A DNA stretch of 43,824 bases from Hydrogenophilales bacterium. GTDB lineage: Bacteria; Pseudomonadota; Gammaproteobacteria; Burkholderiales; Thiobacillaceae. The notes beneath the pieces were generated by a model. It ran no database searches, was not told where the DNA came from, and worked only from the letters and a program-made list of their open reading frames with translations. Positions 2-31,168 of this stretch are shown here, piece by piece. Both the position numbers and the translations under genes were made by a program. Numbering within the stretch: position 1 is the first letter of the stretch; each line of letters starts with the position of its first letter. The stretch covers positions 1 to 43,824 of the forward strand of contig JAGXGP010000103.1 of assembly GCA_024636775.1 (NCBI GenBank). The letters are read 5' to 3'.

Positions 2-220
2 ACCACCTATTACCTGCGCACCATGGGCGCCACCTCGGCCGAGAAATCCACCGGCAAGGGCGGCGAACTCAATGCGGTGTCGTCAAGCGGCGGCGCTAGC
101 ACCTCGCACAGCGCCATGAACAAGGCGGCGGCTAATTTGCCCACGCCCGAGCTCGACGGCATTGCCTGCACCATGCGGCCGGGCGATGTCGGGTTTGAAG
201 AATGCGAGTCGTGCCAGTAA
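2..220 (+). CDS. nrdA: Ribonucleoside-diphosphate reductase alpha subunit, C-terminal end (partial)
   Basis: The reading frame is open from the window edge and ends with TAA. It encodes the last 72 residues of class I ribonucleotide reductase large subunit, which reduces ribonucleotides to deoxyribonucleotides together with NrdB. The tail reads ACTMRPGDVGFEECESCQ: the CESC pair is the C-terminal redox-active cysteine pair that shuttles electrons from thioredoxin or glutaredoxin to the active site. The linker before it is rich in Ser, Gly and Ala, as expected for the flexible arm. The 5' part lies outside the window. nrdB follows about 610 bp downstream, an unusually large gap filled with repeats. 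Confidence 0.93.
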   Translation, partial: TTYYLRTMGATSAEKSTGKGGELNAVSSSGGASTSHSAMNKAAANLPTPELDGIACTMRPGDVGFEECESCQ

Positions 221-464
221 AGAGTAGGAGGAGGAGCGCCAGCAGCAACGGCGGTAAAAAAGAAGAGGCCAACCTGGCCAATGAGGGTTTCGCCATGCGC
301 GAGGGTTCATTGGCCGGGGGCAGCCCTGAAGAATTCTGATCTGCATGGGATTAAACACATGTGGAGAGGCATGCCCCCGAAGGGACTCCGATCCACTACG
401 CGCTAAAGCACGTGTGGAATCGTATGCCCGGCGGCAAGTGAAGAGGGTTATGCGTTAACCGTAA

Positions 465-705
465 GCCCTGATCAGACTCTGGTCGGGAGCTGCCGGTACA
501 TGGAAAGTAGTTATGCGTTAACCGTTCGCCCTGAGCTTGTCGAAGGGAGCCTGTCGCAGACAGGTAGGCATTTAAACCGTACGGGCTGAGCCTGACGAAG
601 CCTCGCCCTGATCAGAGTCTGGTCGAAGGACGCCGGTTCATAGAAAGTAGTTATGCGTTAACCGTTCGCCCTGAGCCTGTCGAAGGGAGCCTGTCGCAGA
701 CAGGT
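465..705. repeat. Two copies of a ~100-bp direct repeat between nrdA and nrdB
   Basis: Positions 465-565 and 605-705 are near-identical copies offset by 140 bp. Both contain TTATGCGTTAACCGTTCGCC, a CTGAGC(T/C)TGTCGAAGGG palindromic core and GAGCCTGTCGCAGACAGG. A partial third copy of the TTATGCGTTAACCG part begins near 449. The CCCTGAGC-TGTCGAAGGG core resembles REP-type extragenic palindromes widespread in proteobacterial genomes. The rest of the 221-833 gap shows no convincing gene. Near 752-804 there are two GTGGGC-CAGCCCAC palindromes just before the nrdB ribosome binding site. Confidence 0.8.
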
Positions 706-833
706 TGATAACTCGCCCTGCAAAGGGCGCCCGGCCAAGGCCAGTTAGATACACGGTGGGCACCAGCCCACCACCAGATTAAAAGTAGTGTGGGCCCAGC
801 CCACTTTGGTCAAACCAAAGGAGATTTAGAACG

Positions 834-1970
834 ATGCTGAATTTTGAAGATGATTTCACACCCGCCGCCCAGCCCGTCAACGTGCCGTCATTCCTGCGCA
901 AGGATGCGGCCCCGAGTGCGGCTGCTGACGAGGCACCCGCCGCGCCCAGCACCCAGCGTGTGCAAGCCTCCGACAAGCGCATCATCAACGGCGCAACGGA
1001 CGTGAATCAGTTGGTCCCCTTCAAATACAAATGGGCCTGGCAGAAATACCTCGACGCCTGCGCCAACCACTGGATGCCGCAGGAAGTGAACATGAGCCGC
1101 GACATTGCGCAGTGGAAAGACCCCACCGCGCTCACCGAAGACGAGCGCCGTCTGGTCACGCGCAACCTCGGTTTCTTTGTCACCGCCGATTCGCTGGCCG
1201 CCAACAACATCGTGCTCGGCACCTATCGCCACATCACCGCGCCCGAGTGCCGCCAGTACCTGCTGCGCCAGGCGTTTGAAGAAGCCATCCACACCCACGC
1301 CTATCAATACATCGTCGAATCGCTGGGCCTGGACGAAGGCGAAACCTTCAACGCGTATCACGAAATCGCCAGCATCCGCGACAAGGACGAGTTCCTCATC
1401 CCCTTCATCAACACGCTGACCGACCCCGAATTCAAAACCGGCACCCCGGAAAACGACCAGGCGCTGTTGAAGTCGCTGATCGTCTTTGCCTGCATCATGG
1501 AAGGCATCTTCTTCTACGTCGGCTTTGTGCAGATCCTCGCGCTGGGTCGCCAGAACAAGATGACCGGCGCCGCCGAGCAGTATCAATACATCCTGCGCGA
1601 CGAATCGATGCACTGCAATTTCGGCATCGACCTCATCAACACCATCAAGCTCGAAAACCCTCACCTCTGGACCAACGAGTTCAAGAAAGAACTCACCGGC
1701 CTGTTCCAGAAAGGTGTCGAGCTCGAATACCGCTACGCCGAAGACACCATGCCGCGCGGCGTGCTGGGCCTGAACTCAGCCCAGTTCAAGGAATATCTGC
1801 GCTTCATTGCCAACCGCCGCTGCCAGCAGATCGGGCTGGACGAAATGTTCCCCGGCGTCACCAACCCCTTCCCCTGGATGGCCGAAATGATCGATTTGAA
1901 GAAGGAGAAAAATTTCTTCGAGACGCGCGTCACCGAGTATCAGACGGGCGGGGCGTTGAGCTGGGATTGA
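834..1970 (+). CDS. nrdB: Ribonucleoside-diphosphate reductase beta subunit, class Ia
   Basis: 378-residue R2 subunit that generates and stores the tyrosyl radical used by NrdA. The iron-ligand helix [10 protein letters not shown] lies at about residues 148-157: E150 and H153 match the E. coli E115/H118 ligands, and Y157 sits four residues after the His, as the radical tyrosine Y122 does. A second ligand pair is in RDESMH further on. The Tyr is present, so this is a conventional Ia radical protein. The start ATG is preceded by AAAGGAG at good spacing. The C-terminal tail (ending GGALSWD) is the NrdA-docking peptide. A strong terminator follows. Degenerate copies of this gene's 3' end recur at 5949 and 40999. 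Confidence 0.97.
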
Positions 1971-1981
1971 TGTGTTAGATG

Positions 1982-2011
1982 AAAAAAGGCGCAGGTTACT
2001 GCGCCTTTTTT
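1982..2011 (+). terminator. Rho-independent terminator of nrdB
   Basis: AAAAAAGGCGCA, loop GGTTAC, then TGCGCCTTTTTT: a GC stem flanked by A and T tracts, 12 bp after the nrdB stop. The same stem is duplicated at 6122-6151. Confidence 0.93.
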
Positions 2012-2076
2012 GTTGGGGTGGTGTGTTAATGCAAAACCTAATCCCGTGTTCGTTTTCGTGAAATTAGAGCGATATA

Positions 2077-3033
2077 GTGACCAAGACAACGACTAAGAAA
2101 ACTTTGACTAAGAAGCCCGCTACGAGGAAGTCTTCAGTTTCAACCAGCTCGCAACGGTTCGAACCAGCGAAGCTCGATTCGCTTTTTATGGCGCTTGACG
2201 CTATCGCTTGGTTAGATGCTCCATCTAGTGGCCAAGTGGCACAGTTTGCCGGCATTGATCCTCGCACTGCTGGCAAGTTACTCAAGAACGCCGTTCAGAT
2301 TGGATTGGTCGATGTTGTAGGTGCGGGGTATGTATTGGTGTTGCCATACCCGTACAAGGGTTCGCAGGATCAGAAACAGGCTGTGGTCAAGGAAGCCCTA
2401 GTCCGCCTTCCCCTGCTGACAGGTGTGCGCCAGTTTCTCAGGCTTGGCGATAAAACGGAGGCAGCACTGCGTAAGGCCGCCACGGTCGCGGGTATTTCAC
2501 CTTTCGTGCCTGCAGATCTCAACCCGCTGCTGGAGTGGGCACAGTCGCTGGGCGCACTTCAGCCGAGTCTCGTGGCCGAAGACCTTGTTGATGAGGCTGA
2601 AACCAAGAAGGAGCGTCGTCACCTGGAGGCAAAGGATCAACGAGTGGCATTCTTATCCCACAGCTCTGCTGATAAAGCTTTTATCCGACAACTGGCCGCC
2701 GATCTCACTGCAAACGGGATCAGCGTGTGGCTTGATGAGCAGCGCATACGCGTGGGCGACTCTATTCCGGAGAAAATCGCCCAAGGTTTGGCCGAGTCGG
2801 ACTACTTTTTAATTGGCATGAGCCATAAGTCGAGTGAGTCAGCATGGGTGCAAAAAGAACTGAACAATGCATTGATGTCCGAGGTGCAGCGCCGCAAGGT
2901 CCATATCCTGCCGCTTAAATTGGATGACACGCCGATGCCGCAAATCATCGCCGATAAGAAGTATGCAGATTTTTCGAAGTCGTACAAAGCAGGACTAGAT
3001 GACTTGCTCTCTGCAATGAAGGGAACTGTATGA
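2077..3033 (+). CDS. TIR-domain protein with N-terminal winged-helix-like region
   Basis: 318 residues from a GTG start (weak upstream AGAGCG). The first 30 residues are basic and Thr/Lys-rich. Residues 30-160 look helical with a winged-helix flavour (LDAPSSGQVAQFAGIDPRTA). Residues 189-315 form a TIR domain: VAFLSHSSADK at the first strand and BB-loop area, SVWLDEQRIRVGDSI, and SAWVQKEL, whose Glu (E261) matches the catalytic glutamate of NAD-cleaving TIRs. Bacterial TIR proteins often act as anti-phage effectors that deplete NAD+. It overlaps the next gene by 4 bp (ATGA), so the two are translationally coupled. It lies in a segment bracketed by nrdB 3'-end repeats. A role in defence is inferred; the TIR assignment is well supported. 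Confidence 0.88.
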   Translation: MTKTTTKKTLTKKPATRKSSVSTSSQRFEPAKLDSLFMALDAIAWLDAPSSGQVAQFAGIDPRTAGKLLKNAVQIGLVDVVGAGYVLVLPYPYKGSQDQKQAVVKEALVRLPLLTGVRQFLRLGDKTEAALRKAATVAGISPFVPADLNPLLEWAQSLGALQPSLVAEDLVDEAETKKERRHLEAKDQRVAFLSHSSADKAFIRQLAADLTANGISVWLDEQRIRVGDSIPEKIAQGLAESDYFLIGMSHKSSESAWVQKELNNALMSEVQRRKVHILPLKLDDTPMPQIIADKKYADFSKSYKAGLDDLLSAMKGTV

Positions 3034-3854
3034 CTACAGCACCGGAAATGAAGATCCGTCAGATGCCGAAGGGTGGGCGAAAGGGCGGTAGCATCTTTCC
3101 GCGCTTAGCGCTCAACGATGCCATCGGTTATGCACGCAAGCTGGTCAGTAAAACCCATACAGCACCTCAGCCCCAAGATGTGATCCTCTCGGGTGTGATT
3201 GGAGTAAAAGGGGGAATAGGTGGCGTCCGTATGTCCGCCCTAAAGCAGTACGGATTTCTCAATGGCGACACGAAGACAAACTATTCCGCCGGTGACTTGG
3301 CGAAGAAGATCGCAGCTGCACCACACGAAGAGTTGGTTCCGTTGTACCGGCAGGCAATGCTCAAGCCCACAGTCTTCAAGAAGTTGTTCGACACTTTCCA
3401 TGGTGACACGGTGTCGAAGGCCAAGTTGAAGCAGCGGGCGGCAGACCTCAAGGTGCATCCGGATGAGACAGCGACCTGCGTGGACTTATACATTGCAGGT
3501 ATGACGATTGCGGATCTTGTGACCGTTGATGGGGATCAAGTCAAGCATCTGGCGTCGAGTGATGTCGCTTCTGCAGCCGCAAGCGCTGCTGCAGAAGCGG
3601 AGCTAGAAACGTCAGATGAAGAGTCAGGAGGTGAAGCGCTCGCCGAAGCTGAGGACAGAGCTGGTGAAGTAGAAGGAGAGGTGGCGAACGGTGCTAACGA
3701 CGATGAGAAGGTCGCCAAGGTGCGGGCGCTCAAAGGCACCGGTCAAGTAGGACCACGCGCAGTCTTTAACGTGAACGTCACACTTGATTCCAGCTTAGAC
3801 ATCGAGAAGCTCCAGAAGCAGTTGGAACTGCTAAAGCGTTTCGGCGCGATCTAA
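3030..3854 (+). CDS. Hypothetical partner protein of the TIR gene (DUF5343-like N-terminal region)
   Basis: 274 residues; the ATG overlaps the TIR gene stop, marking a two-gene operon. Residues 1-165 resemble DUF5343-type proteins: a segment ending VRMSALKQYGFLNGDTKTNY looks like a helix-turn-helix arm, followed by LYRQAML and a basic helical part. Residues about 175-225 are acidic, Ala/Glu-rich and low in complexity, a probable linker. The C-terminus (VFNVNVTLDSSLDIEKL) is a short strand-helix module often found at the end of such proteins. I assign no biochemical function. The tight coupling suggests a regulator, sensor or immunity partner of the TIR effector. The DUF5343 call is by appearance only. 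Confidence 0.75.
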   Translation: MTTAPEMKIRQMPKGGRKGGSIFPRLALNDAIGYARKLVSKTHTAPQPQDVILSGVIGVKGGIGGVRMSALKQYGFLNGDTKTNYSAGDLAKKIAAAPHEELVPLYRQAMLKPTVFKKLFDTFHGDTVSKAKLKQRAADLKVHPDETATCVDLYIAGMTIADLVTVDGDQVKHLASSDVASAAASAAAEAELETSDEESGGEALAEAEDRAGEVEGEVANGANDDEKVAKVRALKGTGQVGPRAVFNVNVTLDSSLDIEKLQKQLELLKRFGAI

Positions 3855-26626: not shown

Positions 26627-27793
26627 ATGCACCTGCTTTACGCCACTCTGTTATCTCTTTTTCTGATCAGCCCTGTATTCGCCATGCAGATATTCGTCAA
26701 AACACTCACGGGAAAAACCATTACGCTCGATGTCGAGCCGAATGACACGATCGAAAACGTCAAGGCCAAGATCCAGGAAAAGGAGGGCGTTCCGCCCGAT
26801 CAGCAAATTCTCGTGTTTGCCGGGAAAACCCTTGAAGACGGACGCACGCTCGTGGACTACAACATCCAGAAGGAAAGCACGCTCCATCTCTCGCTCGTAT
26901 CGGCTGCCTCGCGATCGGCCCCGCAATCTGCGATGCGTGCTGCGTCCGCCTTGCTTGCCCGCTCAGGGCAGCGTGCTGCGCTGCAGGTACTCGACTCGCC
27001 GCTGGGTTCGAGTTCGCCGTTGATTGCCTCGCAATATACCGAGGTTCTGACCCCTGCGGGGCAGCCTGACATCGCCGTAGGCGCGGGGGGAGCGTCGGCT
27101 CGCGGTGGCACGGGTGCCGACCGTTACGATTCGTCCCTGCGCCATGTTTTTCTGGGTGGCGATCTGTCGAGGAGCGCATCAATGCGTTGGGGTGCCATTG
27201 CGGCCTACGGGTTGGGCGAGCTGGATTGGGCCGGCGGGGTGTCGCAGGATGTCGCCCAGCTGGGCGCTTATGCCTACGTCCAGTCCATTCCCGGTGCTGC
27301 CGAGTGGTGGCGTTATTCGGGTGTACTCGGGTTGTTTTGCACACGCTATGACGAGGCGGATGCGTCGGCCACGCCAACACGCTTTGTCGCTCATGGTTGG
27401 CGAACCGACGCGATTGGCCGCGTGGAGTATCTTCCGAGCCCGATGATTTCTTTGCGCTCGACAATTGCGCTATCTGCCGAGCGTGTAGCGGATTCTCCTG
27501 TCTACGGGGGCAAGCGTTCGATGTTTCTGGCCGAGTGGGCCAACGCGGTTCGCGTGGTAGCTGCGGCGTCTTCTCTTGTTCGACCCTACTTTGAAGTGGG
27601 CGCGAATCTGGTCAACGCACCGGGTCTCATCTCACCCGGTGCGTCCCAACATCTCTTCGGTGAAGCTGCTGTCGGAATTGAAGCGCAGACACATCGCGCA
27701 GGCCCGGTCTTTTCGCTACATGCCCGCCATGCGCAGGGCCTGGATGACTATCGTTCCACATCTGCATCGATGGGGCTTGCCTGGAGGATTTGA
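26627..27793 (+). CDS. Ubiquitin fused to an autotransporter-like outer-membrane barrel
   Basis: 388 residues from the ATG at 26627; a TTG ten codons earlier is less likely because it would precede the signal peptide with charged residues. Residues 1-19 ([19 protein letters not shown]) form a signal peptide with a VFA cleavage site. Residues 20-91 are ubiquitin: [20 protein letters not shown] and onward, matching human ubiquitin at about 62 of 71 positions, with all seven Lys kept. The changes are E16D, S20N, D32E, I36V, R42I, I44V, Q49T, S57V and V70S; after Leu71 the sequence diverges, so LRLRGG is absent. Residues about 95-125 are an Ala-rich helix, and about 160-388 alternate as beta-strands ([32 protein letters not shown]) ending ASMGLAWRI, like an autotransporter barrel. 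Predicted secreted or surface-displayed. No E1, E2 or deubiquitinase gene is nearby. Confidence 0.92.
26684..26896 (+). other. Ubiquitin domain within the fusion (Met1 to Leu71 equivalent)
   Basis: Codon 20 of the gene is the ATG that corresponds to ubiquitin Met1, directly after the VFA signal-peptidase site. The codons are bacterial in style, without introns. Lys 6, 11, 27, 29, 33, 48 and 63 are all present. Leu8 and His68 are kept; Ile44 is Val, and Val70 is Ser. Confidence 0.95.
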
Positions 27794-30265: not shown

Positions 30266-31168
30266 ATGAACATCACGTCCAAGCAAACAAGCAGTACACA
30301 CCATGCCAACGCACTGAAATCGTTGCCGGTTCTGACATTGGCGGTGATGGGCGTGTTTTGCGGCGCCTCCTCGGCATGGGCCACGCCTGTACTGGGTTCG
30401 GCTCAGAGCTTTGCGGTCCTGGGATCCTCGACGGTGACCAATACCGGCCCGACCACGCTCTGGGGCGATCTGGGTCTTTACCCGGGTACTTCGTACACGC
30501 CTGGGTCTGCGGGGGTGACCCAAACGGGAACGGTACACCTGGCGGATGGCGTTGCGCAGCAGGCGCTGATTGATGCCCGCAAGGCATACCATGCGCTTGC
30601 CGGTCTATCGGCCACCAGCGATTTGAGTAGCGTGGGTCTGGACTTCTACAACAGTGCTGCAAATGCGCTGACTCCGGGTGTTTATTCATTTAGCTCGTCG
30701 GCTTTATTGACTGGCGGCCTCTATCTAGACGCTCAAAACAATACCGATGCACTCTGGGTATTTCAGATCGGGAGCGCGCTCACGACGCTAAGCGGTTCGA
30801 GTGTCAATCTGCTGAATGGCGTTGCCGGTGCAGATTACGGACTGTATTGGCAGGTCGGCAGCTCTGCTACGCTTGGCACCAGCACGGCGTTCGCAGGAAA
30901 CATTCTCGCGGATCAGAGTGTTGCCCTGAATACCACGGCAACGATGTTGTGCGGCAGGGCTATCGCGTTGAATGGGGCGGTGACCCTGGATTCCAACACG
31001 ATCTCCAACGATTGTCTCAACGGCAGCATCAACGGACCCAGCGACTACGGCAGTATCGGCTACAGTGGCAACCCCGGTGGCGTCGTGGCTGTACCCGAAC
31101 CGGCAACACTGGCGCTGTTTGGACTCGGATTGGCGGGGCTCGGATTTACCCGCCGTCGCCTGACCTGA
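30266..31168 (+). CDS. DUF3494 ice-binding-like protein with PEP-CTERM anchor
   Basis: 300 residues. The signal peptide ends near SAWA|TP. The DUF3494 domain (about 43-255) opens with LGSAQSFAVLGSSTVTNTGP and contains GTSTAFAGNILADQSV and RAIALNGAVTLDSNTI, the right-handed beta-helix family first known from ice-binding proteins; many members act in adhesion. The C-terminus has VPEPATLALFGLGLAGLG followed by RRRLT, a PEP-CTERM sorting signal cut by an exosortase. AAAGGGAAG precedes the ATG. Export to the envelope or exopolysaccharide is expected. No exosortase gene lies in the window. Confidence 0.95.
   Translation: MNITSKQTSSTHHANALKSLPVLTLAVMGVFCGASSAWATPVLGSAQSFAVLGSSTVTNTGPTTLWGDLGLYPGTSYTPGSAGVTQTGTVHLADGVAQQALIDARKAYHALAGLSATSDLSSVGLDFYNSAANALTPGVYSFSSSALLTGGLYLDAQNNTDALWVFQIGSALTTLSGSSVNLLNGVAGADYGLYWQVGSSATLGTSTAFAGNILADQSVALNTTATMLCGRAIALNGAVTLDSNTISNDCLNGSINGPSDYGSIGYSGNPGGVVAVPEPATLALFGLGLAGLGFTRRRLT

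What the first reader, a model, noticed from the sequence alone, without database searches (positions are those of the whole stretch)
26627..27793. Secreted bacterial ubiquitin fused to an autotransporter-like barrel
The sequence shows a signal peptide, a ubiquitin unit (about 62 of 71 positions as in human ubiquitin), a helical linker and a C-terminal alternating beta-strand region. Ubiquitin is rare in bacteria; the precedent I know is the exported ubiquitin of Bacteroides fragilis, which also lacks the terminal Gly-Gly. Attachment to an outer-membrane translocator is, to my knowledge, undescribed. It predicts ubiquitin on the cell surface, perhaps for contact with eukaryotic grazers, hosts or their ubiquitin enzymes. 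The function is inference.
Basis: partly seen in the sequence, partly recalled or inferred. Interest (0 to 1): 0.96.

Follow-up and report, generated by a model that had tools for sequence, protein, structure and literature searches.

The report
Ubiquitin displayed by a bacterial autotransporter
A betaproteobacterial gene joins an export signal, a near-human but non-attachable ubiquitin and a predicted self-inserting outer-membrane barrel, and relatives in many other bacteria join exported ubiquitin to other surface anchors, so ubiquitin seems to have been recruited as a bacterial surface protein whose partner is unknown.

Summary

Wider result: exported ubiquitin is not a B. fragilis oddity. 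Of 74 further ORFs read, 65 pass a crude signal-peptide test directly before Met1. C-terminally many carry autotransporter barrels, S-layer domains, T9SS tails or membrane-plus-basic tails; 25 of 77 showed no anchor. Only two keep Gly-Gly.

Mechanism: a Sec-exported, autotransporter-displayed, non-conjugatable ubiquitin used as a contact ligand. Display rests on anatomy and a predicted structure; the partner is unknown. The window copy has R42I, I44V, V70S and R72V, which speaks against ordinary eukaryotic ubiquitin receptors; the one assayed relative (BfUbb) inhibits other bacteria. Nine literature searches listed no anchored bacterial ubiquitin.

The parts
26627..27793 (+). whole gene: signal peptide - ubiquitin - helical linker - 12-strand autotransporter barrel, 388 aa plus stop
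26627..26683 (+). signal peptide, residues 1-19, ends V-F-A directly before ubiquitin Met1
   Evidence: sequence, judged by eye: hydrophobic core, small residues at -3/-1; no signal-peptide program was on hand
26684..26896 (+). ubiquitin domain, residues 20-90 (= ubiquitin 1-71), 62 of 71 as in human; all seven lysines kept; changes include R42I, I44V, Q49T, V70S
26897..26911 (+). altered ubiquitin tail, residues 91-95 (V-S-A-A-S in place of R-L-R-G-G)
26918..26995 (+). helix 98-123, proposed pore-spanning linker helix
   Evidence: model secondary structure; structural alignments of NalP and AIDA-I begin at residues 97 and 93
26996..27067 (+). stretch between helix and barrel, residues 124-147, low confidence
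   Evidence: pLDDT under 50 at 126-146
27068..27790 (+). 12-strand translocator barrel, residues 148-388

Best explanation
The protein is a small classical (type Va-like) autotransporter whose passenger is a ubiquitin. It would be exported by Sec; signal peptidase I would cut after Ala19, which frees the natural Met1 of ubiquitin; the C-terminal 12-strand barrel would be inserted in the outer membrane, the 98-123 helix would thread its pore, and the 71-residue ubiquitin would fold outside and stay tethered at the very tip. Without Gly-Gly it can neither be conjugated nor be cut at that site by ordinary deubiquitinases, so it acts as a fixed, non-covalent contact ligand, not as a modifier. Inferred, not shown: surface exposure, and the partner. 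I lean slightly to a bacterial partner (antagonism or recognition, like BfUbb; about 0.35) over a eukaryotic one (about 0.3). The display part alone I hold at about 0.85.
For: Twelve strands plus a 26-residue helix in the model (best of five models: mean pLDDT 77.4, pTM 0.66, five sequences in the alignment). The 16 best structural rows are autotransporter entries, several of one protein (EspP); four of the first five lie within 2.3-2.6 A over 262-264 residues and the other at 3.1 A over 269. The profile of the window-type proteins also finds a stretch of a 1,196-codon ORF in another genome of the order (E 7.9e-7) that reads by eye like the end of a large autotransporter (not scanned with Pfam). 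Ubiquitin lies directly after the signal peptide, the passenger place of a type Va autotransporter. Parallel architectures among 77 parsed ORFs: 26 in the autotransporter set (PF03797 at E up to 0.01 in 26 of 27, the 26 plus the window), 4 SLH, 2 T9SS tails, 13 membrane-plus-basic tails by a crude rule, with IPTL-CTERM in 5 of 45; SLH fell only in Bacillota and T9SS only in Bacteroidota by record title. Ubiquitin is held at 75-87% between the five window-type proteins while barrels range over 33-77%.
Against: No localisation data. The model has low-confidence stretches and the other four models score lower (75.7 down to 64.3). PF03797 is below the curated cut-off for the window protein; profile comparison with canonical ubiquitin-autotransporter barrels is weak (probability 8.7, E 0.0038), and the barrel profile found no autotransporter among PDB sequences. 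The last residue is Ile in the window and Leu in its nearest relative; the other three end in Phe, Phe, Tyr. The passenger, about 71 residues, is far shorter than the 193-3,374 given for characterised autotransporters (PMC9289746, passage seen). Ubiquitin is hardly better kept than the barrel in the closest pair (80% against 77%). In the genus, the three carriers are all below 90% complete: 0 of 27 high-quality genomes have it. A fast-folding domain might jam translocation (inference). 25 of 77 ORFs showed no anchor by my rules.
Confidence: 0.75

Rival explanations
1. Eukaryote-directed mimic: the displayed ubiquitin is read by protists or hosts (ubiquitin receptors, phagosome machinery).
For: Sequence still 62 of 71 human; all seven lysines kept in 52 of 74 ubiquitins and L8/I44/V70 intact in 38 of 74; third-position GC of the ubiquitin stretch follows its surroundings (r 0.80, n 72), so the genes look long-resident and the protein kept; nematodes export ubiquitin as an effector (told in PMC5705921, passage seen). 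Several record titles name rumen or reticulum and a lake, where protists graze (inference).
Against: The window copy has R42I, I44V, V70S, R72V and no Gly-Gly. In the 74 the positions 8, 36, 42, 44, 48, 70, 71 are less kept than the rest of 1-71 (0.78 against 0.90, permutation p 0.026; the set comes from examples in PMC4862753 and was chosen after I had seen the conservation table; relatedness not corrected). Surface ubiquitin might also invite autophagy receptors (inference).
Confidence: 0.3
2. Antibacterial ubiquitin: a tethered (or shed) relative of B. fragilis BfUbb that inhibits or recognises other bacteria.
For: BfUbb inhibits other B. fragilis strains as a 76-aa synthetic protein, bovine ubiquitin was tested beside it as inactive control, no immunity gene seems needed, and it too has a signal peptide ending at Met1 and no terminal Gly (PMC5705921, abstract and passages seen). 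Patchy presence (3 of 56 genus genomes), two diverged copies in one congener and a broken one in another, and copies on phage contigs fit a competition gene.
Against: BfUbb is soluble, this one is tethered; no target, toxicity or immunity has been looked for; patchiness fits many gene classes, and the genus carriers are incomplete bins. An earlier paper reports that BfUbb binds human E1 and blocks ubiquitination in vitro (PMC3352274, first part and passages seen). A 2023 paper on BfUbb (cited in PMC12853789) was not held, so its mechanism is not used here.
Confidence: 0.3
3. Generic tip domain: ubiquitin is used only as a hard, protease-resistant cap on surface proteins, with no ubiquitin-specific partner.
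For: Domains behind it vary (Ig-like, GLUG, MBG, LRR, SLH) and some copies have drifted to 42-45 of 71 human-like positions (L126, L125).
Against: Most copies read keep surface positions that the fold alone may not need: by the yeast scans much of the ubiquitin surface tolerates change (PMC4862753, PMC6078352, passages seen). My scan favoured well-kept copies, which softens this.
Confidence: 0.2
4. Periplasmic ubiquitin on an outer-membrane porin: the N-terminal domain never crosses the outer membrane.
For: Ubiquitin folds fast (recalled); the barrel is divergent from PF03797.
Against: Helix plus 12-strand barrel aligns as one unit with autotransporter structures; relatives sit on SLH and T9SS tails, which lead to the outside.
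Confidence: 0.08

Closest known systems
BfUbb of Bacteroides fragilis (PMC3352274, PMC5705921)
   Same: exported bacterial ubiquitin; signal peptide ends at Met1; last residues altered, no terminal Gly; 63% identical to human there (48 of 76), 62 of 71 positions here
   Different: BfUbb is a free 76-aa secreted protein; here ubiquitin is followed by a helix and an outer-membrane barrel. Activity here unknown
Classical autotransporters, type Va (NalP, AIDA-I, EspP, EstA)
   Different: passenger is a ubiquitin of about 71 residues; the two autotransporter surveys looked into (PMC9289746, PMC3419190) contain the word ubiquitin 0 times in the main text
Secreted ubiquitin effectors of plant-parasitic nematodes (as told in PMC5705921)
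   Same: signal peptide on ubiquitin, extended C terminus
   Different: eukaryotic, soluble, delivered into plants
Bacterial ubiquitin-like conjugation systems (Bil and others; recalled)
   Same: ubiquitin fold in bacteria
   Different: those are cytoplasmic with E1/E2 genes alongside (recalled); here export, no Gly-Gly, and no such gene among the ten neighbours scanned at three loci

Membership tests
Classical (type Va) autotransporter | N-terminal Sec signal peptide | tested here: met
   residues 1-19, hydrophobic, V-F-A end; judged by eye, no dedicated program
Classical (type Va) autotransporter | C-terminal 12-strand barrel | tested here: met
   twelve strands between 148 and 387 in the model; best solved matches are autotransporters. 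A prediction, not an experimental structure
Classical (type Va) autotransporter | PF03797 over its curated cut-off | tested here: inconclusive
   21.4 bits against 26, E 2.4e-4; 5 of 5 window-type proteins match at E up to 1, best 5.7e-7
Classical (type Va) autotransporter | alpha-helical linker that spans the pore | tested here: met
   helix 98-123 lies inside the stretch aligned with NalP (97-388) and AIDA-I (93-388); that it sits in the pore is read from these alignments, coordinates were not inspected
Classical (type Va) autotransporter | passenger reaches the cell surface | not testable with these tools
   needs surface labelling
Ubiquitin (PF00240) | sequence and beta-grasp fold of ubiquitin | tested here: met
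Conjugatable ubiquitin modifier | C-terminal Gly-Gly | tested here: not met
   A-S at 75-76; so not filed as a modifier
Conjugatable ubiquitin modifier | E1/E2 partners in the genome | tested here: inconclusive
   no UQ_con (E2) match in the own genome, but the control rang nowhere; none among five window neighbours scanned; E1 not searched
BfUbb-type exported bacterial ubiquitin | signal peptide ending at ubiquitin Met1, no terminal Gly | tested here: met
   comparison from PMC5705921 and PMC3352274
BfUbb-type exported bacterial ubiquitin | free, unanchored secreted protein | tested here: not met
   about 297 residues with a barrel follow
BfUbb-type exported bacterial ubiquitin | growth inhibition of other bacteria | not testable with these tools
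   needs assays

The most novel reading that the evidence does not exclude
Ubiquitin has become a stock tip domain of bacterial surface proteins across many phyla: exported with a free Met1, fitted to whatever anchor the phylum uses (autotransporter barrel, SLH, T9SS, IPTL-CTERM), stripped of its conjugation tail, partly remodelled on its receptor-binding face, and sometimes carried by phages; it forms a so far undescribed class of surface ubiquitins for contact with other cells.
Probability: 0.5. Interest if true: 0.95.

Novelty: new variant of a known kind. Interest (0 to 1): 0.88.

Why it matters
Ubiquitin is the emblem of the eukaryotic interior; here it is predicted on the outside of bacteria, in a form that cannot be conjugated. 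If true, it names a class of surface proteins spread over many phyla, offers an autotransporter passenger shorter than any in the survey looked into (193 residues and up, PMC9289746, passage seen), useful for translocation mechanism and display, shows which parts of ubiquitin stay fixed once conjugation no longer matters, and makes directly testable whether bacteria use ubiquitin against each other or towards protists. It also warns that automatic annotation gives such proteins 'protein ubiquitination' terms (R. albus plasmid gene).

Tried and rejected
Contamination or chimera: rejected for the window-type proteins (own bin contig, two congeners, one MAG and the isolate Leeia), although 0 of 27 high-quality genomes of the genus carry it. 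Among the 80 loci, L053, L056 and L083 (no leader, LRGG; L056 polyubiquitin) were judged likely eukaryotic contamination by me and left out of the 74-ORF and 74-ubiquitin counts; L027 (cut) was also left out of the ubiquitin counts; L043, L071 and L078 were not parsed. Phage origin of the window gene: no match in the phage records. Conserved partner gene: none seen among ten neighbours scanned at window, congener and Leeia. Ubiquitin tree: 72 columns do not resolve single against repeated origin (2 of 73 inner branches starred); no claim made. dN/dS: dS saturated in most pairs (its linker and barrel columns were also wrongly cut, corrected); the codon run gave tree lengths (4.8 ubiquitin, 16.5 linker, 17.7 barrel) but I did not obtain a ratio. 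Barrel profile against PDB sequences: no autotransporter at E up to 10. Strand-alternation test of the barrel by my own script: 33 of 500 shuffles as high, so weak. Promoter scan: nothing. Foldseek 'pdb' and 'viral' searches were not obtained, so only the VIA-align second look was used. Ascertainment: the scan patterns fix ubiquitin positions 23-30 and the table keeps the 80 best of 145 confirmed by likeness to the window protein, so conservation and perhaps the share with leaders are overstated; profile finds L125 and L126 are only 45 and 42 of 71 human-like.

Full report
What is there. Window 26627-27793 on the + strand is one open gene of 388 codons. Residues 1-19 form a hydrophobic signal peptide that ends V-F-A; the next residue is Met1 of a ubiquitin. 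Ubiquitin is matched by PF00240 at E 1.3e-26 and aligns without gaps to PDB ubiquitin; 62 of 71 positions agree with human. The tail R-L-R-G-G is replaced by V-S-A-A-S. Residues 98-123 are a helix and 148-387 hold twelve strands in an AlphaFold2 model made from five natural sequences (best of five models: mean pLDDT 77.4, pTM 0.66; the others 75.7 to 64.3; under 50 at 11-17, 92-97 and 126-146).

Not an artefact. The window is a complete contig of a bacterial bin (2.8 Mb, 87.4% complete, 4.3% contamination) beside a TMEM175-family channel, a PilZ protein, a DJ-1/PfpI protein and a PEP-CTERM ice-binding-like protein. In the genus 3 of 56 genomes have a relative, 0 of 27 among those at least 90% complete and at most 5% contaminated: the own one, G022 with two copies about 16 kb apart (its contig has the length, 82,131, of JAGXGM010000037.1, titled Hydrogenophilales bacterium), and G020, where the orthologous gene between the same neighbours is broken by a frameshift and what looks by eye like an inserted transposase remnant. 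Further full-length relatives are L013 (betaproteobacterial MAG, 44%) and L014 (Leeia oryzae DSM 17879, 41%), the latter also met in a held genome that is 99% complete. The ubiquitin parts of these five proteins are 75-87% identical, the barrels 33-77%; in the closest pair the two are about equal (80 and 77%).

The wider family. One scan of species genomes matched 443 stretches, confirmed 145 and kept 80 loci. I parsed 77 ORFs and set 3 aside as likely eukaryotic. Of the remaining 74, which include the four full-length relatives, 65 pass a crude signal-peptide rule directly before ubiquitin Met1; 5 of the other 9 have a hydrophobic leader but an unusual -3 residue; 4 show none in frame. Only 3 of the 74 carry the scan pattern that reaches into the signal peptide, so this is not an effect of that pattern, although ranking by likeness to the window protein may favour leaders. 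By anchor (77 ORFs): 26 autotransporter set, 4 SLH, 2 T9SS, 13 membrane-plus-basic tail, 25 none seen, 4 cut by contig ends, 3 set aside. Support by family models: PF03797 at E up to 0.01 in 26 of 27 (the 26 plus the window, chosen by eye beforehand); SLH in 4 of 45 and Por_Secre_tail in 2 of 45; IPTL-CTERM at E up to 0.01 in 5 of 45. Which locus carries which SLH or T9SS match I assigned by eye. Record titles name isolates of Leeia, Iodobacter, Pseudovibrio, Paracidovorax, Cocleimonas, Brevundimonas, Pedobacter, Saccharibacillus, Cohnella and Ruminococcus albus, among others; R. albus 7 has one on a complete plasmid record, matched from query residue 4, leader included. Per genome it is rare: 2 of 369 genomes of the class over the cut-off, own one included, 5 at E up to 0.001; 6 of 399 of the order with any match to the five-protein profile at E up to 0.001, some weak or barrel-only.

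What the ubiquitin has kept and lost. Over 74 ubiquitins (window plus 73), 55 of positions 1-71 are human-like in 85% or more, but 72-76 fall to 54, 39, 19, 14 and 5%. Only L057 and L060 keep Gly-Gly at 75-76, and only 2 of 73 keep positions 42, 44, 48, 75 and 76 together. Positions named as needed in yeast (R42, I44, K48) or as examples of those needed under stress (L8, I36, V70, L71; PMC4862753, passages seen) average 0.78 against 0.90 for the rest (p 0.026 by permutation of positions); I chose this set after seeing the conservation table, and related sequences were not weighted. In the window 36, 42, 44 and 70 of these are changed, 36 and 44 mildly, while 8, 48 and 71 are kept. Third-position GC of the ubiquitin stretch follows the GC of its surroundings (r 0.80, 72 loci): these look like settled bacterial genes, not fresh contaminants. 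The scan patterns fix positions 23-30 and favour well-kept copies; two profile-found copies have only 45 and 42 of 71.

How it most likely works. Shown by computation: the domain order, the ubiquitin family and, as a prediction, both folds. Following from knowledge of type V secretion (PMC9289746 and PMC3419190, passages seen): Sec export, insertion by the BAM complex, helix in the pore, passenger outside. Inferred: signal peptidase frees Met1; ubiquitin stays tethered; without Gly-Gly it is a non-covalent ligand. Partner open. BfUbb inhibits other B. fragilis while bovine ubiquitin is the inactive control (PMC5705921, abstract and passages seen); earlier it was reported to bind human E1 and block ubiquitination in vitro (PMC3352274, abstract, introduction and passages seen). 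I lean slightly to a bacterial partner.

Novelty. Ten searches of the paper library were made; nine, all but, bore on bacterial or exported ubiquitin, its anchors or autotransporters. None of their listings, which were capped (12 to 20 papers of up to 663; two searches found no paper), showed a paper on a surface-anchored or autotransporter-borne bacterial ubiquitin; listings were read by title and start of abstract, and most subscription papers are not held. A 2024 review of ubiquitin evolution has no 'signal peptide', 'secreted' or 'bacteroides' in its main text (PMC11354881). The 2017 paper calls B. fragilis one of a few bacteria with a eukaryotic-like ubiquitin. Autotransporters and exported ubiquitin are each known, so the window protein is a new variant of known kinds; the many-phylum class of anchored ubiquitins would be the larger finding.

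Noticed in passing
L129, L130, L131 (L131:1800-2246 +): Three IMG/VR contigs carry signal peptide - ubiquitin - basic membrane tail (IPTL-CTERM by model in L131, near-identical ORFs in the others). In L131 terminase small and large subunit genes follow, in L130 terminase large and a portal match (L129 not scanned): exported ubiquitin as phage cargo.
   Followed up: partly
L125:1417-1812 -, L126:1429-1830 -: Two strongly drifted exported ubiquitins (45 and 42 of 71 human-like) with membrane-plus-basic tails, both directly downstream of a gene that looks like a transhydrogenase subunit (by eye).
   Followed up: partly
L057 and L060: Exported ubiquitins that keep L-R-G-G but run on C-terminally, so a deubiquitinase could in principle cut them.
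   Followed up: no
L132:2932-3258 +: Signal peptide plus ubiquitin ending in L-R-G-G, 67 of 71 human-like, on a contig labelled viral.
   Followed up: no
L003/L010 (genome G020): Syntenic broken copy: frameshift in the ubiquitin part and a transposase-like remnant (by eye) in the barrel part.
   Followed up: yes
L095 (Ruminococcus albus 7 plasmid pRUMAL01): Exported ubiquitin annotated with 'protein ubiquitination' terms, within a run of mostly hypothetical genes.
   Followed up: no
L096 (genome G245 of the class): Signal peptide - ubiquitin - fibronectin-like stretch - tail with a sub-threshold IPTL-CTERM match (19.5 bits against 20.5), in a 98% complete genome.
   Followed up: partly
L015, L016, L018: Very similar ubiquitin-autotransporter proteins in MAGs titled Methylophilaceae, cyanobacterium and Bacteroidota; the short contigs of the last two may be misbinned.
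   Followed up: no
L068 and L074: Two actinobacterial MAG loci with alike ubiquitin-like proteins without a leader in frame and with a common C-terminal domain.
   Followed up: no
window 30266-31168 +: Ice-binding-like protein (PF11999) with a PEP-CTERM tail.
   Followed up: no
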